Assembly: GCA_027625915.1 (NCBI GenBank)
Contig: JANTQA010000023.1
Coordinates: 9,300,001-9,364,000 of the forward strand
Direction of reading: 5' to 3'
Origin: Anaeramoeba flamelloides
Lineage: Eukaryota > Metamonada > Anaeramoebidae
DNA length: 64,000 nucleotides
The position numbers were made by a program, and so were the translations under genes. Every line of letters begins with the position of its first letter. Position 1 is the stretch's first letter. A model generated the notes under the pieces. The model was not told where the DNA came from and did no database searches. It was given only the letters and a program-made list of their open reading frames with translations. This document shows, in pieces, positions 10,738 through 46,726 of this stretch.

Positions 10738-13700
10738 ATGTGGTCACAAGCAAAAGGAGTTGGTAAGACCCCGTCTGGTAGACATGCACATGCGACTGTG
10801 GTATGGAAAAAAAAAATTCTTTTTTTTGGAGGCTATTCAAAAAACTCCAAGACAGACACACAATATTTCCATAATGACTATTATACTTTAGACACAGGTA
10901 AACAAAATCCAAAATATCCTACCATTTCTTATTTCTGTTTTTTTCTTCAAGAACAAAAGAACAAAAGAACAAATGGAAAAAAGATAAAAGAAGATCAATT
11001 AACAAAGAAAAAAAATTCACTAAGAAAATATTCTGTTTATTATCCTCTTTTCCTTTGGTTTTGAAATAACAAATTAATAGGAAGCTTAAAATGGAGTAGG
11101 AAACGGATCAGTAATGCGCCCCCACCAAGAGCCGGACATACCTTTACATTACTTCCCCAAGCCTCACGATGTATTTTGTTTGGTGGATCAATGTCTCTTC
11201 TCGACTACTCAAACGAGCTTTATCAATTGGACTTTGAAGGAGGGAAATGGTACAAGTATCCTTCAAACCAACTCACACCAAAGCCTCGGCATGGACATAC
11301 AATGAATGTTATTTCAAAACACCAAATGTGCCTTTTTGGTGGATATAATTTTTCTCAAGGAGACTGTGATTTTTATAATGATCTTCATTTGCTTGATTTT
11401 GGTAAGAATTTCTTTCAGTTAATAGTTAAAATCATGATAAACAAAAACAGTGATTCGACAAAAACTTGAAAAACAAAAACAAAGAAAAAAACCAAAACAA
11501 AAAACATAAAACAAAAAACAAAACAAAATCCAAAACAAACACCTTTTTCAAAAATTTAATTCCAAAAAGCTTTTTTCAATTCCAAAAGAAAAAAAAATTT
11601 AAAGAGCACAAATAATGATTTTTACGATTGGGTTTTCATATTTTTCAAAATCTAGAAAACAGACAACAAAATTTTCTAAAAAAAAGAAAGAAAACTTCTC
11701 CCTGATTTTATTAAATTGTAAAATAGTGAAAAAAATAGCGGATAAGAAAAAAATAATGGACAAGCTTTTTGATTGTTAATATTAGGAAAATAGTCTTGTA
11801 ATTTCTTTTATTTAAAATCAAATCCTTTTTTTAAGAATCAAATTTTTAAAATTATAACTCACCCACTTATTAGAATGATGATTAATTAAAATACACTTGC
11901 CTCAAAACACCATTCATCAATCGATAAACAAAGAATAAAAATTATTTATTTTCCAAACTCTCTCGCAAACCTCTAGATAATCTCGATTATTTTTCAAAAT
12001 AGGTTGTGCTTCTTTAGGTTCTTATCAAACAATTAAATGAGTATTCTATAGATACCCCCACTTTAGTGAACTTTAGGTGGGTTTATTACTTCGGTTCATA
12101 AAAGATTTGGTTATTTTTTTTTTTTTTTATTTTTTAACGGAGGAGTTGTTAGTCCCTCTTGTTGGCCCGAATTCCTAAATTTTTATTTAGAAATTTTAAT
12201 AAAGACTCGAAAATTAGTCTATTACCCACAAGTGATAATAAATATATTGAATCTTTTTTAATAATAATATTAAAAATATTATTATTATTTAATATATTAG
12301 ATATATTAATTTTTTTTAATTCAGATATCGAAATTCTACGATTATTTTCATAGGCTGGGCAGTTCCAGAGAAAATGATCCAAATCTTCAATGATATCCAA
12401 ATTTTTTGATTTTTTGCATAATTTGCAAAATTTTGATTTATCTTTGTTCATAACATAAGAGTATCTGTTTAGATAATTTGTAAAATTTCGGAGTTTTAAA
12501 ATCGAAGTTGAACCCTTCCATTTTAAATATCTTTGTTGTTTGTTAATATTATTTTGAATAGAAATAATTTTTAAATATTTATGAACTTTCCAACTGGGAC
12601 TATTTTCTAGTTGTTTGATTCTATATTTCTCGAGTTCAATTTCGAGTTCTTTTAAGGTATTTGATTGCCAGTTAATATTTTCGAATTTCTGCTCTCTAAA
12701 TTTAAGATTATTAACTATTTGATTAAAATCCAAAATTTTTAATTTTTGGATTAGTTTAAATCTTCTTTTATATATTGTTATTCTTGCTGTGTCGATTTTG
12801 GCTTCTGTTTTATAAATAAGTCTGGGAGAGTGTGGATTTATTAATAAAAATTTTGTTATTTTTTTATTTATCCATACATCGATTGCATTGAAGTCTTTTT
12901 GTGTTAGATCAAATATTTCTAACCCATATAATAATTGACTATGTAAAACCGCTTTAAAAAAATGAATCTTTAATCCATTGGTGAATTTTTTTTGTTGTAG
13001 GATATTAATTAATTTTTTAAAATTGGCCTTAACTTTGTCAAAGTTAAACTTTAAGTGAGTTTGTTTATCAAGCCAAATCCCAAGATATAAAATTTCTTTT
13101 GGATTTGTAGTTTTTTTAGTTTTATCCTTATTCGGATTCATTCCAAAATCTCTAATCATTTTAAATATTTTCTCTACATGATAATTTATTTCTATTAGCG
13201 ATCCCTTCATAATTAATATCAAGTCATCTGCAAACATTTGTACATGTATTGCTAATGGTTTGAGTTTATCTAAAAGAAAATGAGTAATAAATCCAAATAA
13301 TAAAGGGGGCAGAGGATCACCCTGATAAACACCAATTCCTTCTTTTGAATAATAAGCTAATAAAAATTTTACAATAATTTCATTTTTTATAATTTTTTTA
13401 ATTGAATGATAGATTAAAGAATGATGAATAGAGTCAAAACATTTTTGTATATCTATTGTTACAATATAAATATTTTCTTTTTTAAATTTATTTTTGATTT
13501 TGTTAAATTCATTAAATAAATTTAAAACTGCTATTCTTGTATCTAGTTTTTTTTTTGAAACCGAATTGATTTTTTGAAACTAAATCCCAAGAGTCCTGAA
13601 TTCCAGCATATAATAATTTTAGAAAAAATCTTGGAAGAGTTTGATTAATTGAAATTGGTCGATAATTTATCGGAATCCCTTCGTCTCCAGATTTATGTAT

Positions 13701-17515: not shown

Positions 17516-20500
17516 AATCAATTTAATAATATAATTTATTTAGAAACTAAAAAACTGAAAAAAAATAAGAACAAAATAAAAAAAATTGAATAAAAATTGT
17601 TGAATTTAGCATTACGAATTTTTTTCTATGTATTAAGAAAAAAAAAATCACATTATTAGGGCCATAACCTCTTTGATTCAACGCACATTTTCTATTTTCA
17701 ACTCAATAATCCATTTTTTTTTAAATTTTCATATCCAAACATAACCAAAAAATGAAACCAAAAAATATCAGGAAAATATTTAAACAAAAACAAATATAAA
17801 AGTAAAAGTAAAAGAAAAAGGAAAAACAACGTAATTTCACAAGAAAAAAAAAAATTCTATGAGCAAAAAAGAAAAGAAAAAGAAAAAAATTAGATAAATA
17901 TTTAAAACTTAATAATATTTTAATACATATCAGCCCATAACTTTACTTCAAAAAAATTATTCACATCTTTTTTAATTTCTAATTTTAAATTTCATAATTT
18001 CAAAAATATTATATTTATAGAAACAATGAATTGGAAAGAGATCGAATGTACTGGTGATGTACCAAAAAGCCGTGATAAACATACTTTAACATGCATTGGA
18101 AGAGATCAATATTTATTATTTGGTGGTCATAATTTTGATCAATATTTTTCGGAGGTTCATATTTTAGATGTTCACACACAAAAATGGATATTACCAGAAA
18201 TTAGAGGTAGGCATAGGCCAATGGCAAGAGATGGTCATACAACGATTGAAATTGGGGATGGTAGAATTTTATTATGGGGGGGTTCAAGTGGTGGTGAAAA
18301 TTTTTTAAAAGATTTATGGACAATGGATCCAAGTAAATAATAACCTTTTTTTTTTTTTTTTTTTTTTTTCTATATCTTTCTCAAAAAAACAAAGGAATAA
18401 ACCGTATTTTAGTTCTTTGTTCGGATATTAAAACAATGAATTTTGGAATTTAAATATTTTTTTTTCAATTCTACACAACATTTTCAAATTTGTGCAAACC
18501 TTTCATTAAATATTCACAAAAAATTTGAAAAAAGAAATTTTAGATAAAAAAATGAAAAATCAATTTTTTGTTATTTCAATGATATAATATATATATAACC
18601 TTGGAAATAAATATTTATTTTTGTTTGAATTACCAATGTCATATATTTTGAAGTTCTATTTTTCAAAAACTATTCACAAAAATGGAACCTTTTTTCACAT
18701 TATTTCACAAAAATAAAACAATTTGTGAATTTTTGTAAACAAAAGTTCGAGAACAATGTGCTGGGGATTTAATAGTTTTTTTTAAAGTATAATACAAAAT
18801 TTTATTTTTTACTCTCGTTTTCACAAGATTTTCACAAATAATTTGTGATTTGGTAACAAAAATATACTAAAAATGAAACAACCATTGAAAGTGGAAAAAA
18901 TATTTTTTTTGTTAATTTAATAAAAAAAATCAATTTTTATTGTTTTTTTATTTTGGTGAACTTTTTTGTAAAAATATATTTTTTTCTGAAAAACCAAAAT
19001 GAAAATGCTGTGTATTTAAAATAAAGAATCTTAAAACTCATTATTAATATTTAACATGAAGATCTACTAATTAAGAAATTATCTTGAAATTTTGGAAAAA
19101 TATCAAATATGGCAACAATATTTTTTTTTTTTTTTTTTATGTATTTTTTAGATTTTATCATTTTTTTAACCCCTTAAATATGATGTTTAAAAATAATAAA
19201 ACTAATTGTTATTTCTTATCTTGTTATAATTTTTAATTCAAAAAAAAAAAAAAAAAATCAATTAAAAAAGGGGAAATGAGATGGAGAAAACAAGAAGTGA
19301 AAGGAAAAACACCAGGTCCGCGCTCTGGCCATTCGATGGATTTAGTTGATGGCCGGATATTTGTATTTGGTGGGTTAGGAATAGGTGAAAATTTTTATGA
19401 TGATCTTTCAATGTTAAGTATTGGTGATGATGTTGATAAATTTGTAAAAAAAGAAGAAGGTGCAATTGGCTTAATGAAACAAGGAGAGGAAAGAATAAAC
19501 CATATGCAGATAAAAAGAAGTGAAAGAAACAATTATTCTAAAAGATTTTCGAAAGAAAATTACACCTCTTCGGGTGATGAATGGAATACAAACAAAAAAA
19601 ATCAATATAATTCAGAGTCTTTAAAGACTAAAATGCTATTTAATCAAACAATTACAACAACTTATATTAAAAATCCAGGTAAACAGACTTTCTAAATTTA
19701 ACTATGTTATTATTAATATTGATGAATTTTTTAAAAACCAATTTTTTTTTTTTTTTTTTTTATGCTGATTTTGAAATATACAAAAAAAAATAATAGAAAT
19801 TACTTCAAAATTATATTATGAAGAAAACATATTAAATTTTAATGATATAATTACTGATGGGTTTTATGATGGGGGGAGAGGAAGCTCCTTTTCATCTTTA
19901 GAAAAATTTGAAGAACAAACAATTTCCACAAATGATCGAGAAGTATTAGTTATTAATGCCAAGCTTGACAAAGCTTTAGAAAACTTTCGAAATAACACGG
20001 TCTATTTATTATGCTCAATTAGTGAAGTTAGAGATCGTATTTTATTATTATCATTAATTGTCTCTGATTTCTTTGGTGGGTCTCACAATCCAAAGATCAT
20101 TGGATTGTCTTTAAATAATATTGGAGAATTAAAGGAATCACTTGAGTCAAATGTAATACCCATTGGGCATATAAATTTTGGGTTATGTAGACATCGGGCG
20201 ATAATGTTTAAATATTTGGCTGATTGTCATAATTTTATTGAAAAGGACAAGCATTTAAAAATCCCATGTAAATTAGTTAGAGGTGTTTATGCGAAAAATA
20301 ATGAGGCGGAGCAAATTGGAGGTCATGTTTGGAATATTGTTAGACTGAGCGGGAACGATTATGTAATTGATGTTATGTTTGAACCAACAATATTACAAAA
20401 TAGGAAAGGGTGGAGGGCGTCAAAATATTTTCGAATCAAAAGAGAAGAAAATCGGGTAGTTATTGCAGGCGGATCTGGTGCCTCGCTGAAAATTGATAGT

Positions 20501-22570
20501 TCTATTGAGTTACAAAAGGGATTAACTCAAAAGAAAAAAGAATTGGAAAGGAAAAAGAAAAAAGTCAAAAAGCAAAGAAAAAAAAAAAATAATAAGGAAA
20601 ACAAAAATTATACTTTACAAAAAAAAAAAGCAAACTTCCCTATTGGAACAAATAAAACACAAAAAGATAAAAAAAAAAATCTCAATTTGAAAAATAATCT
20701 CTCTAGCAAAAAAAGAAAAGCAAAAACTAAGAAAAAAAAAAAAAATGTAGATTTTTCAGCAAGTAATTCAGAGAATTTATCACGGTCATCGAGATCAGAT
20801 TCAGGGGTTGGATTTGAAATGAAATTAGGGTCAGAGTCAGGATTTGAGAGTAAATCAGGATCAGGATCAGGATCAGGATCAGAACCAGAATCGGGATCAA
20901 GATCAGGATCATTTTCAGAACAAAAGTCTTTTGAAGAACAAATACACCAGGAAGATAAAAAGAAAAAGAAAAGATATAAAGATAAAAAAAAAAAAAAATC
21001 AAAATCAAAACTGGAAGTCTCTAATTCTGAACTAGAATCAAATTCTGAAAATGGAAATGATAATGATGACAATAATCAAAATAATAATAACAATAATAAT
21101 GAAAACATTAGTGATAATGATGATCAAGATGACGATGGCGATAGCAATAATGCTAATGATCAAATTATGAAAAAGAAATTAAAAAAAGGCAAAAGGAAAA
21201 ATAAAAGCAAAAAGAAACATAGAAATAAAAAAAGAAGCAAATCCGATCGTTCTGTACTGGAAACTGAAAAACAAAAAAAAAATGAAGAAATAGGAATTAA
21301 AACAGAAATAAATAACATTGAAGAAAAAACCAATGTCCGATCAACAAAATTTAATGAGAATAATCATGATGATGATAACAACATCAGAGACGACGATGAT
21401 GACGACGACGACAATGATGATGATGAGGAAAGTGGTCGGGGCAGTGGTGATGATGAAGGTCAGGATATTGATGATAATGAAGAAATGGTATCTTCAAAAC
21501 AAAGTCAAAATAAAAAAAAATCCAAAAAGAGAAGGCATTCCCACACGAAATCTAAAAATAATAATAAAGACAATTCAACAGAAAAAGATAGAATCGGAAA
21601 ATCTTCAACTTTTTCAAATATTATCAATAGTAAAAGCAAAAGCAAAAAAAGTCAAAGTTCCAGAAAGTCACATTCTCGAAGCAAATATAGTTTGGACCTC
21701 AAAGGCGGATTCAACGCAAAAACCCAAGAAGGAAAAATCACATGGAAAATAAGTGTTGATGAATTACATAGGATTAATATCTTAGGTGTGGGATCGATCG
21801 GTGTTGTCTATAGGAGTAAATGGCTAGGGATCAATGTTGCACAAAAGACATTATTTATACAAGATTTTGATGAGCAATTTATGGAGACCTTAAAAAGGGA
21901 AGTTTCAATAATGAGTGAAATGAGACACCCCAACATCGTCCAATTTTTAGGAGCCTGCTTCGAAAAGCCAAATATTTCGCTTGTTCATGAATTTTTACCA
22001 AAAAAGACGTTAAGGAATGTTTTAAGAGATCCAAAGTTTGTTATAGATGCAAATCTGGCAATCAATTGGGCAATCCAAATTGCCAAGGGGATGCATTTTT
22101 TGCATCATAAAAACGTTTTACATGGCGATTTAAAAACTGAAAATATTTTGGTAGCAAATGATCTTTCTTTAAAAATTTCAGATTTTGGACTAGAATTGGT
22201 CAAGCAAAAAACATCAAGTATCACCAACCGCGGAATGGGATCGCCTGTATTTTTATCACCAGAAAAGTTGAAAAATGAAAAAATTACTAAAAAGTCTGAT
22301 GTGTATTCCTTTTCAATAATACTCTGGGAAATCACAACCAGGGAATTGCCCTTCAAAGATTTAAACCCCATCCAAACAGCTTTAGCAATAGTTAATAATC
22401 AGGCGAGGCCAGATATTCCACAAAGTTGCCCAAAGAGTTTGGCTAAATTGATGAAAGAATGTTGGAATGAAGAGCCCAAAAAGAGACCCAATTTTGAGCA
22501 TTTATATAAACGATTAACAAAAATTAGTGATGAAATTAAAACTATGCATAAAAAAAAATCCAAAAAATAA
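10738..22570 (+). CDS. Kelch(x6)-EDR1-TKL protein kinase, five exons
   Basis: Exons 10738-10897, 11081-11401, 18021-18332, 19271-19678 and 19797-22570 join in phase 1 at every GT..AG site, giving 1,324 residues. Exons 1-4 carry exactly six kelch repeats (each PxxR..H...FGG...LD), one six-bladed propeller, so no exon is missing from the 6.6-kb intron 2. Exon 5 opens with an EDR1-type, transglutaminase-like domain (about residues 440-620) with Cys in GLCRHRAIMF (about 531), His in GGHVWNIV (577) and Asp in YVIDVMFEP (592). A charged, disordered linker of Lys, Ser-Gly, Asn and Asp runs follows (about 620-1045). The C-terminal TKL-like kinase (about 1051-1310) has GVGSIGVV, VAQK (Lys 1084), HGDLKTEN (1176-1183), DFG (1196) and SPE. 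The HRD Arg is Gly, so it is a non-RD kinase. EDR1 domains are known from plant Raf-like MAPKKKs; substrates here are unknown. The start is the first ATG before the first kelch repeat and is less certain. Confidence 0.88.
12105..12116. repeat. Target-site duplication, left copy
   Basis: The 12-mer ATTTGGTTATTT occurs here directly beside the T-tract (poly(A) on the minus strand) of the LINE, and again at 13814-13825 directly beside its truncated 5' end. This is the footprint expected of target-primed reverse transcription. Confidence 0.8.
12117..13813 (-). mobile_element. 5'-truncated LINE (non-LTR retrotransposon) with poly(A) tail
   Basis: Read on the minus strand, the element starts abruptly at about 13813 inside a reverse-transcriptase frame, runs through the RT and a zinc knuckle to a stop at 12149, then a short 3' UTR and a broken A tract (about 12117-12136). 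Identical 12-bp target-site duplications flank it at 12105-12116 and 13814-13825. No endonuclease or ORF1 region is present, so the copy is dead on arrival. It lies antisense inside intron 2 of the kelch-EDR1 kinase gene. The short flanking duplication and A tail distinguish it from group II introns and LTR elements. Confidence 0.88.
12149..13800 (-). pseudogene. LINE reverse transcriptase, 5'-truncated and frameshifted
   Basis: The 5' part (13800 down to about 13556) shows the RT finger motifs LLFIHKSGDE, INYRPISI and NQFGF. The 3' part (about 13545 down to 12149) continues with IDIQKCFDSIHHSLIY, the VYQGDPLPPLLF box, the FADD catalytic box near 13235, thumb-like sequence, and a C-terminal zinc knuckle (CKLC..13..H-FLWN-C) of the kind found at LINE C-termini. 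The two parts are in different frames, joined at a run of ten A (minus strand) at 13546-13555; nine would keep one frame. This is either a one-base insertion or a homopolymer miscall. Endonuclease sequence is absent. Confidence 0.88.
13814..13825. repeat. Target-site duplication, right copy
   Basis: Second copy of ATTTGGTTATTT, abutting the truncated 5' end of the LINE; identical to 12105-12116. Confidence 0.8.
15840..16850. repeat. Dispersed ~1-kb repeat, copy 1 (in kinase intron 2)
   Basis: Aligns along its length in the same orientation with about 43340-44345. Shared blocks are interrupted by many substitutions and small indels: the start TTC.GAAATG.ATTATTG, a middle block around AATCTTAATTTTTT, and a 3' block AAATTACT.AAAGTGA. 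It has no reading frame. It is probably an old non-coding transposon or the remains of a segmental duplication. Confidence 0.65.
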
Positions 22571-28500: not shown

Positions 28501-30527
28501 ATGAAAATGAAAAGGAAAAGGAAAATGAAAATTATGAAAAAAATGAATCAGGCAAATTGCAAGGTACTAAAGACACCAAAGATACCAAAGATACTAAAGA
28601 TCCAACATTTTCAAGTCCTTTAATAATTTTACAATTAGAAGATATTGATTCTCAAATTGCGAGTGTAAATACTGTAATGAAGACTATTCGTTTAATGAAT
28701 TTTGAAAAAACCAAAAAAGATTTAAGACACGATTATTTTGTTAAACAAATTTTGGGAGCAAATAAAAAAATGGTTAACAATGTTCATGGAGAATTTACCG
28801 ATCGGATGAAATCAAAAACGAAAAAAGATGTAAATTGACTATTTTTTTTTTTAAAATTTTATCTAATTCTTATATTAAAAACTAAATATTTTTAATTTTT
28901 TTTTTCAAATATATATCTGAAAAACTTGTAAAACTGATTATAGCCAAATTATCGGTCTATTAACGATAGCACACATTTTTTAGAAAACAAAAAATATTTT
29001 AATAAAAATTCTCTTTTATTAAAGGCTATGTTGTTTCATCGAATTTCTGAAGAGCAAACACAAAGTTTTGAATTGGTATCGTTATATCAGCAATTACAAG
29101 AAAATTGGAATTTTGAAACTCCCGTGCGCGAAAGAAAAAGGATCCAGGGCCTCCTCAATAAAAGAAGGAAGATTTTCAACGAAGAACAACAGCAAATCTT
29201 AAGTAACCGTATGAAATATCGAAATTATCCTCAGACAAGGAGAGAAGAGCAAATGGAGCACGTTGTATTTGAAGAAACAGAAGGGACCCTTGCGATGCAA
29301 GAAAATCTTTATGATTCTGGAGACGAATGGCGTGATAGCATGATTGAAGAAATCCAACCAATGACGCTTCATTTAACAGAAAGGAAAACAATGCGGTATT
29401 TGGATAACAATAGATTTGTTTTAAACCCGATAATTGAAAATAAATTTCAAAAAAGTTCCAAACAATGGAGCAAGCAAGAAGAAGAAAATTTTGTTGAGGT
29501 ATTCCGAAAGCATCCCAAAATTTTTCATAAAATTTCACAGGCCTTACCCAACAAATCAACGAAAGATGTCATTTCATTCTATTATTTAAATAAAACAAGG
29601 TTAAAATTGAAACAAAACATGGAACCAACAATGATCAAAAAACGTAGAAACAATAAGCAATTAATACATGAGGGGGATAGCGTAAGAAAGCCACGGCCAA
29701 AGCCCAAGCCAAAGGCTAAGCCCAAGCCCAAGCCAAGAATGAAAACTAGAAATAATGTAGCCAAGGAAAAAATTGAAACAAGTAATAGCCAAGCAAAAAC
29801 AAATAAAAATGTCAAGACAAATAAATCAAATGTCGAAAGGAAAAGAAAACGGGAAAGGGAAAAAAAACGAAATCGGAAAAGAAATGAAACAATTTTTAAT
29901 GAAGAAAATTTTGATAAGCCAAAAAAAATTAAGGGTGCAAATTCTAAAAAAAATCATAATAATAATAATAATGAAAAAATTAGTTCGCCAAAATTAGATA
30001 CAAAGAAATTAGAAAATAAAGAAACAATAATTTTTGAAAATAAAGATAATGGCTTTGTAGACATCGTTTCGCAAAACAAGGACCGATTCAAGCATTGGAA
30101 AAAAGAAGAAATTGAAATCTTTCTTCAAGGATTGAGGCGATATGGTAGAAAATTTACAAAAATTACTTCAACATTGAAAACGAAATCTATCAAGGATTGT
30201 CAAAATTTATATAAATTTTATATCAATAACAACATCAGTAGTGGCGGGGGCTCCACAGCCAATAATACAACGTTTAATTGGACAAACAAACAAAAGGAGT
30301 TTTTTTTGAAATGTTGGAAAGTATATTTCAAAAATTGGAAAAAATATACAGAACACATCCCCTCAAAGTCAATCACCCAAATTGAAAACTATTATAAAAA
30401 AAATAAAAAAAAATTAAATTTGCTGAAAAATCAAAAGCCTAATACCCGTTCAAATAGAACGAAAAAAAATAGTAAGGTGAAGGGATCTTCAAGGAAAGGG
30501 AAAAATTTATTTAATAAAAAAAATTAA
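25586..30527 (+). CDS. NCoR/SMRT-like transcriptional corepressor with three SANT domains, four exons
   Basis: Exons 25586-25707, 25888-26258, 27997-28829 and 29025-30527 join in matching phases (2, 1, 0) and give 942 residues. The N-terminal 370 residues are disordered and Ser/Asn/Gln-rich. Residues 372-442 form a helical block starting PLIILQLEDIDSQIASVN, comparable in place and pattern to the deacetylase-activating region of NCoR/SMRT ('MDRVDREIAMVEQ'). Next come SLYQQL...RKRIQGLLNKRRK, like the NCoR 'LYNQP...KKLILFFKRR' stretch, and the segment EIQPMTLHLTERKTMRYLDN (compare 'IPPMMFDAEQRRVKFINMN'). SANT domains lie at about 588-633, 797-845 and 859-905. Such proteins scaffold class I histone deacetylases and bind histone tails in the nucleus. 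The order of blocks supports orthology more than any single SANT domain could; SANT3 has no clear counterpart. The first two exons are the least certain. Confidence 0.78.
26259..27996 (+). other. 1.7-kb intron 2 of the NCoR-like gene
   Basis: Donor GTAAGA at 26259, acceptor AATATAG ending at 27996; it joins codon A|AT (Asn). It is AT-rich, with T runs near both ends, and shows no coding segment. Confidence 0.7.
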
Positions 30528-33260: not shown

Positions 33261-34991
33261 TTACTCGTCGTCAAAATCAAATGAATAATAGTCACCACCA
33301 CCGCCATCATCATCATTTGCTAATTGTTTTTGATTCTGGTTCTGATTCCGATTCTGATTATGGTTATGGTTATAGTTATTGTTGTCGATATTTTTTAAAT
33401 TATGATTCAAATTTTGATCAAAAATATCTGTAAATTCTGGGTTGTTATTGTCTGTACCTAAATTTTTTTGATGTATATCATTTTCAAAATTTTTTTTGAA
33501 TTCTAAAAGATGCTTTTTGATTAAATTGCTAATTTTTATTTCTTCTTCTTCATCTATAAATTTAATATTTTTCGAGGGTTTATTAACATTGTTAAAATTA
33601 TAATTTAATTGGGATCTGCTTTCTAATTCATTATCAATCGAACACAAATGTTTAGATTGTGTATATGCCAATTGATCAACTTTTTGCGAATAATTTAGGT
33701 TAATATTTTGGTTTGTATTTTTGTTAAATGGCCAAACACCAAAATTTAAAAATAACCCAAATATAACAAAAATTGCAAATAAAGAAATCCCGAAAGTTTC
33801 AAATCCTCTTTTTCGAGTGTTATTGAATTGATCAGAATTTTTATCAAGATCGTCAAAGCTATATGACTCATCATCGTAATCATCAACGTCGTCAATCAGT
33901 AGGCTGTTATTGTTTTGGCTTTGTGAGAAATATGAATTTAATTTTTTATCTGGGATTGATATCATGTCTTTGAGCCAACTTTCAAATTGGAAGGAATCGT
34001 CTTCCTTGTTTGTTTCTTCTTCTTTCTTCACTTCTTGGTTTTGAAATTGTTGCGTTTGTTGCTTTTGTTGTAAATCTTGATGTAATAAGAATTGGAATTG
34101 CTGGTGCTGTTGTTGCTTTTGTAAAAGTTGCTGTATTTGTTCTTGTTGTTGCTTCATTTGCTTTTCTAAGAATTCAAATCGTTTGCTGACATTAATGATT
34201 TCTTGTTCTTTTTGAGATATTTGATTTTTTAAAACCTCGTTCTCTTGTTTTAGTTCCTTGTTATTGGTTTCTAAACTGTCCCAATAAGCTTTTTTTCTTT
34301 CTCTCGTCCTTCTTGCACTTACACGGTTTTTTTCTAACCTTCTTAGGCGCTTTTCTTCTTTATCCATTTTTCGTACTTGAGAGACACTCTCAATTTTTAA
34401 TAATTCTTGGCGGTGTTTGATTGCTTCCCTGGACAATTCTGTTTTTTTCCGTGACATCTTTGTTTTTTTGTTTGGTTTCTTTTGAACTATTTTTCCACTT
34501 TGAGTTTTTTTAATCTTTTGGGCAGGTTCGTAAATGGAATTGTTTGTTGTTTCTCGTTTGATTTCTCCAGCAATTTTCTCTTTTTTTACTAGGCGTTTGT
34601 TTTGTGTATTTTTTTTGTTCAGAGCTGTGGATCTTGTAGTCATAGTACCTGACCTCGTCTTTCTAGTACTAGATCTTGTTACTCTTCGTATGTTGTTGTT
34701 GTTTTTGTTGTTTTTGTTATTGGTAAAGATTGGCTGTATATCTGTATCATTTACGCTTTGATCAATCGGAGAGTCTTCAATTTTTTCAGACACTGGTGAA
34801 ATTGGACTTGAACGTTGATAAGGAACAGAAAACTGTAATTCAGAAATTGGTGAAGTTGTGAATAAAGAATCTTCGTTACAAATCTCAAAGTTATTTTGAT
34901 CATTATCACTAGTTATAAAAGTTGATTCTAAACCAATCTGTGAGATTTCTAAAGTGTTTTGTTCATCAAACCCAAAAATAGAATGTTCCAT
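33261..34991 (-). CDS. Membrane-anchored bZIP transcription factor (ATF6/OASIS-like layout)
   Basis: Single-exon gene of 576 residues. It has an acidic, Ser-rich N-terminus (1-100, a possible activation region), then a Lys/Arg-rich segment. The bZIP basic region at 211-235 has the N-x7-R signature (Asn222, Arg230) within KNRVSARRTRERKK. A leucine zipper and a Gln-rich coiled coil run to about 320. An acidic stretch (366-382) precedes one hydrophobic helix at about 399-420 (GISLFAIFVIFGLFLNFGVW), flanked by RKR on its N-side, which predicts a cytosolic N-terminus and luminal C-terminus. The luminal tail is Asn-rich. By family knowledge, ATF6-, OASIS- and plant bZIP28-type factors sit in the ER membrane and are released by site-1/site-2 proteolysis under stress. 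The basic region RERKK resembles XBP1/HAC1 more than ATF6. A luminal RSQL (459-462) loosely resembles a site-1 site; that is speculative. Confidence 0.88.
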   Translation of the reverse strand: MEHSIFGFDEQNTLEISQIGLESTFITSDNDQNNFEICNEDSLFTTSPISELQFSVPYQRSSPISPVSEKIEDSPIDQSVNDTDIQPIFTNNKNNKNNNNIRRVTRSSTRKTRSGTMTTRSTALNKKNTQNKRLVKKEKIAGEIKRETTNNSIYEPAQKIKKTQSGKIVQKKPNKKTKMSRKKTELSREAIKHRQELLKIESVSQVRKMDKEEKRLRRLEKNRVSARRTRERKKAYWDSLETNNKELKQENEVLKNQISQKEQEIINVSKRFEFLEKQMKQQQEQIQQLLQKQQQHQQFQFLLHQDLQQKQQTQQFQNQEVKKEEETNKEDDSFQFESWLKDMISIPDKKLNSYFSQSQNNNSLLIDDVDDYDDESYSFDDLDKNSDQFNNTRKRGFETFGISLFAIFVIFGLFLNFGVWPFNKNTNQNINLNYSQKVDQLAYTQSKHLCSIDNELESRSQLNYNFNNVNKPSKNIKFIDEEEEIKISNLIKKHLLEFKKNFENDIHQKNLGTDNNNPEFTDIFDQNLNHNLKNIDNNNYNHNHNQNRNQNQNQKQLANDDDGGGGDYYSFDFDDE

Positions 34992-35757: not shown

Positions 35758-36338
35758 TCATAATAATTGGAAATCGGAAAAACCTTTTCAAACGTTGAAT
35801 TTTTAACAATAGGAAGAATTATGATTATCGAAATTGAATTACCCCCTAAAGACACCAAAAGTTCAACGCCTGTCTTAAATATACACTTTCTAAAATTAAG
35901 AATGTAGCAACTTTAATTTTGAAAGAAAAGTTTTTTTCTTTTTCGAAAAAAAAGAGGAAACAAGAAAATATGTACATACTTTTTACTTGTTATTTGACTG
36001 AAACTTTTATTTTATTTTAAAAATACCTTTTAAAATCTCAGACTTTTTAAAATTGAATAATAATTTCAATGAAAACAAGAAATAAAAAAATTTTAACATA
36101 ATTGATGTATTAAAGATCAAAAATGCCTGAACTTAAAAAACATACAATCCTTGTTTCAAAATAAAAGTTGTTCTTATTTTTCTGTTTCCAATGGAAAACC
36201 CAAATCACCAACAGGAGTTATAACGGATACCAAATCGATTTTGAGGGTAAAAACCTTGTTATTATCCATAAAATGTAAATTCTGAATTAAATTTGTTCAA
36301 AATTTTTTGAAATTTTTTTTTTCAATCAAAATAAACTT
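35758..36338. repeat. Direct repeat of ~0.58 kb, copy A
   Basis: Nearly collinear with 36839-37426 (copy B), with small indels and scattered substitutions. Shared blocks include CAATAGGAAGAATTATGATT near the start and GATTTTGAGGGTAAAAACCT near the end. No coding frame is conserved. Confidence 0.85.
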
Positions 36339-36838
36339 AAGGACTATTCGAATTTTATGCTCTTTGAGGATTGAAATAAAATACTATAAACATAAAAAAA
36401 GCTTTAAAGACAATGGATTGAGGAAAAGTAAAAATATTGCAATTTTTGGGATTTTTTAGATTTTGCTTGAAAATCATTTATTGATCCATAAACTTTTTGA
36501 ATTTCCCGAACAAAGCATACAAAACGAGAAAGCTATTTTTTTTGATATTAAGAAAATGCCACTCCACTTTCTTTTCAAGTATATTTATACTCTCTTGCTA
36601 CCCTCTAACTTTCTTGAAAAAAAAGCGGAGTGACATTTTCCTAATGAAATTTTTTTTTTCAAAATTTGTTGAGAATAATTTGGATTTGATGAAGGAAAAT
36701 TGTTTTTTGTGAACTCACAATTTTCCAAAAAAACCTAAATTTTTCAAGTTAGCAAGTTCCATTAGATGAAGTTTCTTATAAGTCTATAAATGTGTTACTT
36801 GGTGAAAAAATAGTATTCACTAACCATAAAATTTAACT

Positions 36839-37426
36839 AATCCATAATAATTGTAAATTGGAAATTCCTTTTCAAATGTTGAATTTTTAACAATAGGAAG
36901 AATTATGATTATCGAAATTAAATTACCCCTTTAAAGAAACCAGAAGATCAATGTTTCTCTTAAATATACACTTTCTGAAATTAAGAATGAAGACACTTTA
37001 ATTTTGAAAAAAAAGTTTTTTTCTTTTTCGAAAAAAAAGAGGAAACAAGAAAAAATTGACATATTTTTTACTTGTTATTTGACTGAAACTTTTATTTTAT
37101 TTTAAAAATACCTTTTAAAATCTCAGACTTCTTAAAATTGAATAATAATTTCAATGAAAACAAGAAATAAAAAAATTTTAACATAATTGATGTATTAAAG
37201 ATCAAAAATGCCTGAACTACAAAAACATATAATCCTTGTTTCAAAATAAAAGTTGTTCTTATTTTTCTGATTGTTCCAATGGAACATCCAAATCATCAAC
37301 ATAGGTTATAACGGATAGTGAACCGATTTTGAGGGTAAAAACCTTGTTATTATCCATAAAATGTAAATTCTGAATTAAATTTGTTCAAAATTTTTTGAAA
37401 TTTTTTTTTTCAATCAAAATAAACTT
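36839..37426. repeat. Direct repeat of ~0.58 kb, copy B
   Basis: Second copy of 35758-36338, about 1.08 kb downstream in the same orientation. The sequence between the copies is unrelated. Confidence 0.85.
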
Positions 37427-39751: not shown

Positions 39752-40975
39752 TTAATTATCTTTTACTTTATTAACTTCCAAAGTTTGATCAACAAATTCT
39801 TCCTTTTTTTTGTTTTCATTTTCCTTTTCCTTTTCGTTTTCTTTTTTCTCATCTTTTTCTTCTTTTTGCATTTCCTTTTCCTTTTTCTCTTCTTTTTCAG
39901 TTTCTTTTTTTTTCTTCTTTTCCTTTTCCTTTTCCTTTTCCTTTTCCTTTTCCTTTTCCTTTTCCTTTTCCTTTTCGTTTTCATTTTCCTTTTTCTCTTC
40001 TTTTTCAGTTTCTTTTTTTTTCTTCTTTTTCTTTTTTGATTTTTTTGATTTTGATTTTGATGGTAAAGATTTTGGTATTTTTTGGTTTAAACGGGTTTCT
40101 TGATCTGGATCCCATCCAGTATTTCGTAAATGGATAATCAAATGCATGTTAACTTCTTGAGGGTTTGAAAGTTGAGGGAAGTCACCGCCGATTTTCACCT
40201 GTGCGTATTTACAATCGGGGAACTTTGTAACAACTTTTTTGCGAACCTTTCTTGGTACATAGCCTTTATCTGATGGGTCGATAATTGTCACGAATTGAGG
40301 ATCGAAATCAATTTTGTCAATAATGGTTTCTGTCGAGATCATTGTAAGCCTTGATGCGAGGTCATCGTATTTCATTTTTTCAACAACCTCGACCATGAAG
40401 TCCAAGCCTTCGGCAATTGTCACCAGCACTTCCTTCTGGGGAAAGGTTTTCAAGAGCTTTCGCTTTAACCAAAATTCTGGTGCCCAAGTGATCATCCCAC
40501 CGCAAGTGTTCAGTCTTGAAAAGAACAATGTGGAAATAAAGGTGTTGCACAAAACAACAGATTTAATTCTTTTATCGTTTTCTTTTTCTAAATATTTCAT
40601 TATCAAGAAACCTCCATATCCTAATCCAAACAAATGGATTTTCTCCAATTCAAGCGAAGAAAGAAACTCTTTAAAGCTTTGGCAAAAGGTTCTGTATGAC
40701 CAAAACGGTGGGTATTGTGCAGAAATTACCCGATATCCCCGTGACGATAATGCTAACAATTGCTGGAAAAAGACATCACAAGAGCCAGGTACTCCATGAA
40801 GGCAAAGTAAGGCTTCATCATTTGAGCCACCTAACGAGTCATAATATTGCCAAACCCCTTCCTCGTTATCTGCATGGATAGAGATCGTGTTTAAGGCTAC
40901 TTCTCCAACAAAGGTTTCAAACATTTTGCTTATTTTTGATTGCTCTTCTTCTTTTTTCTTTTTTTGGTTGGACAT
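39752..40975 (-). CDS. Maspardin (SPG21/ACP33)-like alpha/beta-hydrolase-fold protein with Lys/Glu tail
   Basis: Single exon, 407 residues. Residues 18-295 follow maspardin through its length: VWQYYDSL, GSCDVFFQQLLAL, GYRVISAQYPPFW, KIHLFGLGYGGFL, SVVLCNTF, LDFMVEVVEKM, LASRLTM, VTIIDPSDKG and VKIGGDFPQL..EVNMHLIIHLR. Maspardin is an endosomal/trans-Golgi protein with a hydrolase fold and doubtful catalytic activity. Here the nucleophile elbow reads G117-L-G-Y-G-G: Gly119 stands where vertebrate maspardin has Ser (GASLGG), so serine-hydrolase chemistry is not expected. Residues about 300-407 are a family-atypical tail of Lys-Glu repeats, encoded by a run of the hexamer CCTTTT (plus strand, about 39919-39975); it would form a charged helix. 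The start ATG opens with MSNQKKKK and is the only upstream in-frame choice seen. Confidence 0.9.
   Translation of the reverse strand: MSNQKKKKEEEQSKISKMFETFVGEVALNTISIHADNEEGVWQYYDSLGGSNDEALLCLHGVPGSCDVFFQQLLALSSRGYRVISAQYPPFWSYRTFCQSFKEFLSSLELEKIHLFGLGYGGFLIMKYLEKENDKRIKSVVLCNTFISTLFFSRLNTCGGMITWAPEFWLKRKLLKTFPQKEVLVTIAEGLDFMVEVVEKMKYDDLASRLTMISTETIIDKIDFDPQFVTIIDPSDKGYVPRKVRKKVVTKFPDCKYAQVKIGGDFPQLSNPQEVNMHLIIHLRNTGWDPDQETRLNQKIPKSLPSKSKSKKSKKKKKKKKETEKEEKKENENEKEKEKEKEKEKEKEKEKEKKKKKETEKEEKKEKEMQKEEKDEKKENEKEKENENKKKEEFVDQTLEVNKVKDN
39919..39975. repeat. Coding hexanucleotide microsatellite
   Basis: Nine or so tandem copies of CCTTTT (plus strand) encode Lys-Glu dipeptides in the maspardin tail. 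Flanking sequence at 39820-40040 is a degenerate version of the same unit. Confidence 0.85.
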
Positions 40976-45226: not shown

Positions 45227-46726
45227 ATGACCAACCGAGATAATATTAACGATGTCTTAACATCTCTCATCAATAACAAAGAAATTGCTGATGTCAAATT
45301 TGTTGTTGGAAAAGAAAAAAAAGAATACTACTGTAATAAGCTTTTCCTTCAAAACTGTTCCCCCGTCTGGAAGGAACAACTTTATGATCCCGAATGGAGA
45401 AACAAAACACAAGACTTTGTCACACTTGAAATTGCAGATGTCGAATCTGAAATCTTCTTAGTGATTTTACAATATGTCTACACCAGAAAGCCAGTTCTCA
45501 CCGACAGAAACTGTCTTCGTGTCCAAGAAGCCGCCGACAAATTCAAAATCGACGGATTAGGTGCCATGGCAATGTTATTTATGACCAAGAACATTTCCCC
45601 ACAAAACTGCTTTGATATCTTGAAGAAGGCTCAAGGATACAAAGACGCACTTCTTGAATCAAAAGTATTTGACTTTTTGATGAGAGACGAAGGTGTCTTC
45701 AAGGTAGCCAACATCTTAGTAGGTGTCAAAGAAGAAAACATCAAGACCATCCTTGGATTCAGAAAATGTACTTCATCCGAATATGACATCTTCCATCGAG
45801 TCATTGAATGGGGAAAATGGAAACTTAAGGAAGCCGGCATCGAAGAATCACCAGAGGCACTCAAAGATGTCTTATCTGGACTCTTACCATTAGTTAAACT
45901 CATCCTCATGGGACCCGAACAATTAAAGGAAATCAAAGCATTAAAACTTTATGAAACCAAGGTCATTTTTGACTATTCTCTCAATTTAATTGACAGATAT
46001 AAGGGAAGATCATTCAAAACATCTCGTGGTATTCCAGGACTCTCCAAAGAAACCATCCAAGTCTTACACTTGAGTGCTAACACCGAAAACTGGATCAAAG
46101 ATCTTAAAGAATCCATCCTCTGTACAGGACTTACCAACTACACATACATTTCTGCACAAAAAACAACACCTTCTGTTGAAACTTTAAAAAAATATCACGT
46201 TGTCTGGGTAAATTCAGGAAACTCCTTCCAAAACCCAACACAACTTGGTGACAACCTTGCCAAATATGTTGACGCTGGTGGTTCAGTCGTCATTGGTGGC
46301 GTTCATACCTTAAGATCCGATAACGCCAATTGGGTCATGAAGGGTAAATTAGCCACAGGAAATTACTTACCATTTAAAAAAGGATCATTAGTCCAAAACA
46401 AAAGATGTACCTTAAAAACAATCGTTGAAAAAGACCATATGATCATGAGAGGTGTCAAAACTTTCGATGGTGGAAGATACTCATCCCATGTCAACACTAG
46501 CATAAACTCAGGTGGTATTCCAATCTGTAAATGGTCCGATGACCAAGTTTTAATTGCCGAAAAACCAAGAGAAATGGGTAACACCGTTGTTGCAATTAAC
46601 ATTAGACCAGCAAGCTCTAAAGTTGACGGTTCTTGGTGGGATATCAACACAGATGGTAGACTTTTGATCGGTAACTCTGTTGAATATGCAGGTAAAATGT
46701 CCAAAATTGAATTAGCACAAAAATAA
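45227..46726 (+). CDS. BTB-BACK protein with C-terminal amidotransferase-like domain
   Basis: Single exon, 499 residues. The BTB/POZ domain (about 10-115) has ADVKFVVG, the NCSPVWKEQL helix and the YVYTRKPVL segment. A BACK-type helical region follows (about 120-225, NCFDILKKAQGY, FHRVIEWGKWKL). From about 277 there is an alpha/beta domain: a strand (TIQVLHLSA), KKYHVVWVNSG, DAGGSVVIGGVHT and a later DGRLLIGNSVEY. The pattern resembles class I glutamine-amidotransferase/ThuA-like folds, but no Cys follows the strand at the usual elbow, so activity is unlikely. BTB-BACK proteins usually pair with cullin-3 to present substrates for ubiquitination; kelch repeats, the usual substrate module, are absent and the C-terminal domain may take that role (inference). 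Codons are richer in C-ending forms (ATC, TTC, GTC, AAG) than neighbouring genes, which suggests strong expression. Confidence 0.85.
   Translation: MTNRDNINDVLTSLINNKEIADVKFVVGKEKKEYYCNKLFLQNCSPVWKEQLYDPEWRNKTQDFVTLEIADVESEIFLVILQYVYTRKPVLTDRNCLRVQEAADKFKIDGLGAMAMLFMTKNISPQNCFDILKKAQGYKDALLESKVFDFLMRDEGVFKVANILVGVKEENIKTILGFRKCTSSEYDIFHRVIEWGKWKLKEAGIEESPEALKDVLSGLLPLVKLILMGPEQLKEIKALKLYETKVIFDYSLNLIDRYKGRSFKTSRGIPGLSKETIQVLHLSANTENWIKDLKESILCTGLTNYTYISAQKTTPSVETLKKYHVVWVNSGNSFQNPTQLGDNLAKYVDAGGSVVIGGVHTLRSDNANWVMKGKLATGNYLPFKKGSLVQNKRCTLKTIVEKDHMIMRGVKTFDGGRYSSHVNTSINSGGIPICKWSDDQVLIAEKPREMGNTVVAINIRPASSKVDGSWWDINTDGRLLIGNSVEYAGKMSKIELAQK

What the first reader, a model, noticed from the sequence alone, without database searches (positions are those of the whole stretch)
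33261..34991. bZIP factor with a single transmembrane helix: candidate ER-stress sensor
A basic region of XBP1/HAC1 flavour is combined with an ATF6/OASIS/bZIP28-like type II membrane layout in one short intronless gene. If real, one protein joins features usually split between two arms of the unfolded protein response.
Basis: partly seen in the sequence, partly recalled or inferred. Interest (0 to 1): 0.75.

Follow-up and report, generated by a model that had tools for sequence, protein, structure and literature searches.

The report
Membrane-anchored bZIP factor in an amoeba
An anaerobic amoeba encodes a gene-switch protein tethered to a membrane by one helix, one of a family, and its genome also holds proteases of the kind that release such proteins in animals and plants; this suggests, but does not prove, an ATF6-like stress pathway in a lineage where none was known to us.

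Summary
Window 33261-34991 (-) is an unbroken 576-aa ORF with a Pfam bZIP domain (211-265) and one strong transmembrane (TM) segment (about 399-420). The organism is the metamonad amoeba Anaeramoeba flamelloides. It is not a one-off: 9 of 10 related proteins found, this one included, carry one TM at the same place, and of 50 bZIP loci read (of 148 matched) 14-17 carry a TM-like segment after the zipper (one doubtful). Across the nine, the TM block is the best conserved stretch outside the bZIP module; its dN/dS is 0.07-0.53.

The same genome encodes a clear site-1 protease (E 1.8e-235 to MBTPS1), four site-2-protease-like loci and two IRE1 loci. Luminal tails carry RxxL in 10 of 17 TM loci (3.1 expected; pairs not independent). 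IRE1-type twin hairpins were not found. Best reading: a type II membrane-anchored bZIP released by S1P/S2P-type proteolysis, working like ATF6 or plant bZIP28.

That it fuses two UPR arms is not supported: the basic region (recalled panel) is nearest HY5, then CREB3L-type and XBP1; no IRE1 splice signal was found; and plant bZIP60 already joins a TM anchor with IRE1 splicing. ER stress as the cue is inferred.

The parts
33261..34991 (-). Complete coding sequence, 576 aa, single ORF
   Evidence: single-ORF gene models matched in three paralogs
34812..34991 (-). N-terminal region (residues 1-60), acidic/hydrophobic, putative activation domain; M1 and S4 invariant in 9 of 9 aligned
   Evidence: the activation role is inferred
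34368..34442 (-). Pre-basic conserved module (residues 184-208, RQELLKI...VRKM here), recognisable in the 10 related proteins; R194, L197 and I200 invariant
   Evidence: helices 188-199 and 203-207 in the model
34179..34361 (-). bZIP: basic region and leucine zipper (residues 211-271)
   Evidence: Pfam PF00170 at 211-265, E 1.8e-10; helix 211-318, block pLDDT 92-98 over residues 211-280
33810..34178 (-). Cytosolic linker (residues 272-394): Gln-rich coil, conserved block around 333-356, acidic stretch
   Evidence: local maximum 0.94 in the four closest paralogs; the cytosolic side is inferred
33732..33797 (-). Transmembrane segment (residues 399-420), preceded by RKR
33264..33731 (-). Predicted luminal tail (residues 421-576): RSQL at 459-462 (S1P-type RxxL), one Cys, one sequon, helix 481-510 in the model, acidic-aromatic end
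   Evidence: poorly conserved, mean pairwise identity 0.19 over 431-560 in the nine; the luminal side is inferred

Best explanation
The gene encodes a dormant, membrane-anchored bZIP transcription factor of type II topology, one of a family in Anaeramoeba flamelloides. The N-terminal activation region, basic region and zipper lie in the cytosol and the roughly 155-residue C-terminal tail in the lumen of the ER or secretory pathway (anatomy shown; orientation and compartment inferred from flanking charge and function). A luminal signal, most likely secretory-protein folding stress, lets the protein reach site-1 protease, which cuts the tail (RSQL is a candidate site). Site-2 protease then cuts in the membrane, and the freed bZIP enters the nucleus (inferred from the presence of the S1P and S2P-like genes and from the ATF6/bZIP28 precedent). 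The divergent tails suggest that different paralogs listen to different luminal cues (inferred).
For: Of 10 proteins returned by three searches, 9 (P0001-P0009; 84 to 21% identical to this one) have one strong TM at the equivalent site, K+R higher before it than after in 9 of 9; P0010 stops after the zipper and has none. In 50 bZIP loci read of 148 matched, 14 have KD19 >= 1.8 and 17 >= 1.5 after the zipper in the same ORF, one of them (L057) doubtful. dN/dS in the TM block is 0.07-0.53 over 9 overlapping pairs (0.13 for this gene and its nearest paralog), with dN below that of the tail in 8 of 9. Site-1 protease: L045, 1245 aa, E 1.8e-235 to MBTPS1 (8uwc), with three MBTPS1-specific Pfam domains. 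Site-2 protease: 4 M50 loci, best E 1.3e-8. RxxL in the tail in 10 of 17 TM loci, against 3.06 expected.
Against: No localisation, cleavage or stress data exist. RxxL is absent from 7 of 17 tails, is at the extreme C-terminus in one of the ten (L010), and paralog pairs are not independent. The charge rule fails or ties in 4 of 17 TM loci (L028, L049, L010, L057). The S2P catalytic HExxH was not found in the DNA read. Among the four closest paralogs the TM block is not the second-best conserved stretch: others reach 0.79-0.94 against 0.76. ER stress as the cue has no direct support, and no Pfam domain was found in the tail.
Confidence: 0.66

Rival explanations
1. It is membrane-anchored and released by intramembrane proteolysis, but for a cue other than ER folding stress: lipid or sterol state, phagosome or symbiosome status, or a paralog-specific luminal ligand.
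For: The luminal tail is poorly conserved across paralogs, and TM-bZIP loci are many; the species is known for symbiosomes and membrane-trafficking gene expansions (passages of PMC11550330).
Against: IRE1 is present, so an ER-stress programme probably exists; the closest functional precedents (ATF6, bZIP28) are ER-stress sensors. SREBP/SCAP-type genes could not be looked for.
Confidence: 0.25
2. It is a bZIP60/XBP1-like IRE1 substrate: cytoplasmic mRNA splicing removes the TM.
For: Two IRE1 loci, one of them E 1.5e-95 to solved IRE1; basic region fairly close to XBP1 in a recalled panel.
Against: No stem-loop with the loop bases C1, G3, G6 (6-9 nt loop, stem >= 3) in the gene and about 300 nt of either flank; none with stem >= 4 in 16 of 17 TM-bZIP coding regions and one lone loop just before the bZIP in L010; no twin loops in the 50 bZIP loci read; no Rfam match above cut-off. 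A divergent signal would be missed.
Confidence: 0.07
3. It stays in the membrane (for example inner nuclear membrane) or loses its anchor through an alternative transcript, without proteolysis.
For: Membrane factors with TM-lacking transcripts are known in plants (passages of PMC9237531).
Against: Single-ORF gene; S1P- and S2P-type proteases present.
Confidence: 0.08
4. The hydrophobic stretch is not a membrane span, and the protein is an ordinary nuclear bZIP.
For: Hydropathy is only a prediction.
Against: KD19 2.29 and crude insertion energy -1.6 (scales recalled); conserved position with one TM in 9 of 10 relatives; purifying selection.
Confidence: 0.03

Closest known systems
ATF6 / CREB3 (OASIS) family of animals
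   Same: N-terminal region, bZIP, one TM, luminal C-terminal tail; S1P and S2P-like genes in the same genome; conserved extension just before the basic region (the OASIS extension is recalled, not tested)
   Different: About 127 residues between zipper and TM (ATF6 has very few, recalled); basic region nearer HY5 than ATF6 in a recalled panel; no non-Anaeramoeba relative found by sequence
Plant bZIP17/28/49 (group B)
   Same: Membrane-bound bZIP; bZIP28 is released through S2P and bZIP17 is cut by S1P (passages of PMC9237531)
   Different: No sequence link found beyond the bZIP; recalled bZIP28 scores below HY5, CREB3L-type and XBP1
Plant bZIP60 (and XBP1/HAC1)
   Same: bZIP60 unites a TM anchor and the IRE1 arm (passages of PMC4891664); IRE1 is present here
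   Different: No IRE1-type twin hairpin found in this gene or in 50 bZIP loci read
Arabidopsis HY5
   Same: Closest basic region in a recalled panel (19/29 identical)
   Different: HY5 is soluble and light-regulated (recalled)

Membership tests
bZIP superfamily | N-x7-R basic region followed by a leucine zipper | tested here: met
   Pfam PF00170 E 1.8e-10; N222 and R230 invariant in 9 of 9 aligned; helix 211-318
Type II membrane-anchored bZIP (ATF6/bZIP28 class, by layout) | Single TM C-terminal to the zipper, positive side N-terminal | tested here: met
   prediction only, 9 of 10 relatives share it
Type II membrane-anchored bZIP (ATF6/bZIP28 class, by layout) | S1P encoded in the genome | tested here: met
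   L045, E 1.8e-235 to MBTPS1, three MBTPS1 Pfam domains
Type II membrane-anchored bZIP (ATF6/bZIP28 class, by layout) | S2P encoded in the genome | tested here: inconclusive
   4 M50 loci over the cut-off, with S2P-like motifs recalled; HExxH not seen in the DNA read; no solved-structure match
Type II membrane-anchored bZIP (ATF6/bZIP28 class, by layout) | S1P site (RxxL) in the luminal tail | tested here: inconclusive
   RSQL 459-462 here and in P0002; 10 of 17 TM loci, 3.06 expected
Type II membrane-anchored bZIP (ATF6/bZIP28 class, by layout) | Stress-induced cleavage and nuclear entry | not testable with these tools
   needs cell biology
Metazoan ATF6 family by descent | Orthology of the bZIP and luminal domain | tested here: inconclusive
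   No non-Anaeramoeba protein within the thresholds of three word-limited searches; recalled panel does not favour ATF6; bZIP has too few informative positions (PMC4736632, section 8)
IRE1-spliced bZIP (HAC1/XBP1/bZIP60) | Twin stem-loops with the conserved loop bases | tested here: not met
   none in this gene; none twinned in the 50 loci read
IRE1-spliced bZIP (HAC1/XBP1/bZIP60) | IRE1 in the genome | tested here: met
   2 loci, best E 5.3e-36; L071 E 1.5e-95 to solved IRE1

The most novel reading that the evidence does not exclude
An ATF6-type arm (membrane-anchored bZIP plus S1P and S2P) and IRE1 both operate in a metamonad, so the proteolytic UPR arm seen in animals and plants is as old as the last common eukaryotic ancestor, and Anaeramoeba has multiplied it into a bank of at least 13-16 anchored bZIPs with divergent luminal sensors.
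Probability: 0.3. Interest if true: 0.78.

Novelty: new variant of a known kind. Interest (0 to 1): 0.56.

Why it matters
Membrane-anchored bZIPs freed by proteolysis are described in animals and plants. In passages seen here, one survey lists no ATF6 in the five protozoan parasites and Dictyostelium that it sampled (PMC3084755), and a review says that it was not identified in Dictyostelium (PMC6025073). A metamonad with such factors, a clear S1P orthologue, S2P-like genes and IRE1 makes the age of the proteolytic arm directly testable. A bank of anchored bZIPs with divergent luminal tails could also show how one release mechanism is wired to many luminal signals.

Tried and rejected
Rejected: IRE1 splicing of this mRNA by the canonical signal and an Rfam element (three sub-threshold hits only). 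Rejected: chance hydrophobicity. Set aside: a tree of the bZIP block of 10 relatives, with no starred branch and long branches meeting. A soft test only: the nearest known basic region, as the panel is recalled. The AlphaFold2 model is too poor for a fold search (mean pLDDT 51), so none was run. A first pass over the bZIP loci did not turn minus-strand loci round and gave wrong counts (9 of 50); one search replaces it. L057 passes the hydropathy cut but its flanking charges are reversed and its tail is 23 residues, so I doubt it. Of the seven subtilase stretches taken, I had guessed that the 990-aa ones were S1P; four (L040-L043) looked like Cys-rich repeat proteins by eye, and L045 proved to be S1P.

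Not answered: searches for signal-peptide peptidase, the MBTPS1 fourth domain, bHLH and the sterol-sensing domain. Hence the S1P copy number (four long S8 ORFs, one read) and the presence of SREBP/SCAP stay open. 98 of 148 bZIP loci were not read, and the 50 read are the best-scoring ones.

Full report
What is there. The ORF at 33261-34991 on the minus strand runs from ATG to stop for 576 codons. The chance of so many sense codons from a given start at this composition is about 4e-24. Pfam finds bZIP_1 at residues 211-265 (E 1.8e-10) and bZIP_2, both over cut-off. One segment stands out by hydropathy: residues 401-419, mean 2.29, next best 0.05; 7 of 20000 shuffles reach that value. Before it lies RKR, and K+R counts are 3 before and 1 after, so the cytosolic side is most likely the N-terminal one, as a DNA-binding domain also demands. 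AlphaFold2 on nine aligned relatives gives a bZIP helix 211-318 at high confidence, a helix at 397-416 (pLDDT 75 falling to 56), a tail helix at 481-510, and mostly low confidence elsewhere.

Whose genome. The named relatives found by protein search are all from Anaeramoeba flamelloides. The window lies at C24:9300001-9364000 of a 254-Mb, 76-contig assembly, and three A. flamelloides database proteins (P0002, P0005, P0006) equal ORFs in it. No relative outside Anaeramoeba came within the thresholds (E 0.001, 0.01). These searches need shared 5-residue words, and only about 8000 candidates were scored, so distant relatives can be missed.

The TM is a family trait. The three protein searches returned ten different proteins including this one. 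Nine (P0001-P0009) have one strong TM (best KD19 2.11-2.55, second best 0.05-0.64) at the equivalent position, with more K+R before than after it in nine of nine; P0010 ends after the zipper and has none (best 0.29). Across the nine, mean pairwise identity is 0.54 in the bZIP, 0.45 in the TM and 0.19 over 431-560 of the tail, and the TM block is the highest local maximum outside the bZIP module; among the four closest paralogs alone it is not, as blocks near 48-54, 271 and 333 reach 0.82, 0.79 and 0.94 against 0.76. G401 and G412 in the TM are invariant in nine of nine. At genome scale, PF00170 gave 148 matches, with 150 of 272 candidates scored. I read the 50 best-scoring of the 148. In 14 of 50 the same ORF has KD19 >= 1.8 after the zipper, in 17 of 50 >= 1.5; L057 is doubtful, leaving 13 and 16. 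The 50 include the window gene. They fall into several basic-region types, so the anchor is not confined to one recent clade. The sample is the top third by score, not random. The charge rule holds in 13 of the 17 and fails or ties in L057, L028, L049 and L010.

Selection. Over nine overlapping paralog pairs, dN/dS in the TM block and 10 residues on either side (dN, dS) is 0.03/0.23, 0.08/1.08, 0.18/0.62, 0.02/0.29, 0.10/0.19, 0.07/0.47, 0.13/0.44, 0.02/0.08 and 0.01/0.13. In eight of nine, dN there is below dN of the tail; L006/L010 is the exception (0.10 against 0.07). High dS values are saturated and rough, and one tail dS could not be computed.

Release machinery. PF00082 gave 41 matches. 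L045 (C13) is a 1245-aa ORF with a signal-peptide-like start and the three catalytic-site motifs, E 1.8e-235 to membrane-bound transcription factor site-1 protease in solved structures, and the Pfam domains MBTP1_N, MBTPS1_3rd and MBTPS1_4th. Three other long S8 ORFs (C32, C48, C34; 1124-1173 aa) were not read. PF02163 gave four matches over the cut-off. L069 and L070 carry FSAGIWHN and NVSPCYYTDGG, L067 and L068 close variants; I recall these as hallmarks of animal site-2 protease. L069 gives M50 at 1.7e-7. HExxH was not found in the DNA read, and no solved structure matched. PF06479 gave two loci; L071 matches solved IRE1 at 1.5e-95; L072 was not tested further.

S1P sites. RxxL occurs in the tail of 10 of 17 TM loci against 3.06 expected from shuffled tails. 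Pairs share it (L025/L009 RSQL, L053/L059 RDQL, L028/L049 RTVL, L003/L007 RNIL), so the 17 are not independent; one of the ten (L010) lies at the very end of its tail, and 7 of 17 have none.

IRE1 arm tested and not met. On the sense strand of the gene and about 300 nt on either side there are three CNGNNG words, and none sits in a loop of 6-9 nt with a stem of 3 or more. In 17 TM-bZIP coding regions there is one lone loop, in L010 just before the bZIP. In the 50 loci, scanned with 100 nt before and up to 600 nt after the ORF, there is no twin. Rfam gives nothing over cut-off. A divergent IRE1 signal cannot be excluded.

Basic region. Solved structures give ATF4 first at E 0.0032. So 'XBP1 flavour' is fair and 'HAC1 flavour' is weak. 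PMC4736632 (sections 7 and 8 read, other passages seen) reports one cluster of OASIS-ATF6, HAC1, plant proto-B and heterokont bZIPs, says that such alignments have too few informative positions for meaningful bootstrap, and lists Giardia and Naegleria as its excavates.

Known context. Seen as passages: bZIP60 has a single TM, and its mRNA is spliced by IRE1 so that the TM is lost (PMC4891664; PMC9237531); bZIP28 is cut by S2P, bZIP17 by S1P; Dictyostelium has IreA but its ATF6 and XBP1 counterparts are unidentified (PMC6025073); a survey including five protozoan parasites reports no transcriptional UPR parts in them (PMC3084755). The main text of the Anaeramoeba genome paper holds no occurrence of 'bzip', 'unfolded' or 'stress' (PMC11550330; its supplements were not seen). 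My ten paper searches (only listings and abstract starts seen) listed no membrane-anchored bZIP in a metamonad; the library lacks most subscription papers, and long lists were cut.

Conclusion. Anatomy and gene complement match the ATF6/bZIP28 release mechanism. Membership by descent in ATF6 is not shown. Shown: open reading frame, bZIP, predicted TM, family conservation, selection, S1P orthologue, S2P-like and IRE1 genes. Inferred: orientation, ER residence, cleavage, cue, targets.

Noticed in passing
G000 whole genome: 148 bZIP_1 matches (150 of 272 candidates scored, so a lower bound) in a single-celled amoeba; passages seen give Giardia a solitary bZIP, Dictyostelium 19 and humans 53, and call bZIP diversification largely a trait of multicellular lineages (abstract). 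Some may be recent duplicates.
   Followed up: partly
35759-37426: About 1.1-kb direct duplication just upstream of the gene (blocks 93, 90 and 91% identical, spacing 1084-1088).
   Followed up: no
G000:C24:9279830-9280744, about 20 kb outside the window: The best site-2-protease-like locus lies about 53 kb from the bZIP gene on the same contig; probably chance.
   Followed up: no
G000:C19:307683-509424: Ten subtilase (S8) matches within about 200 kb of a 1-Mb contig, one with an internal stop.
   Followed up: no
33264-33290: Acidic-aromatic C-terminal end (YYSFDFDDE type) kept in P0001-P0004 although the tail is otherwise divergent; it looks like an activation or sorting motif in a place predicted to be luminal.
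   Followed up: no
12149-13237: Reverse-transcriptase-like fragment (PF00078 E 2.7e-5, below the curated cut-off).
   Followed up: no
20105-22570, 29028-30527, 39752-40975, 45227-46726: Neighbours: EDR1/CTR1-type kinase with peptidase-like domain, a Myb-type protein, an alpha/beta hydrolase with a long Lys-Glu tail, a BTB protein; none points to the UPR.
   Followed up: partly
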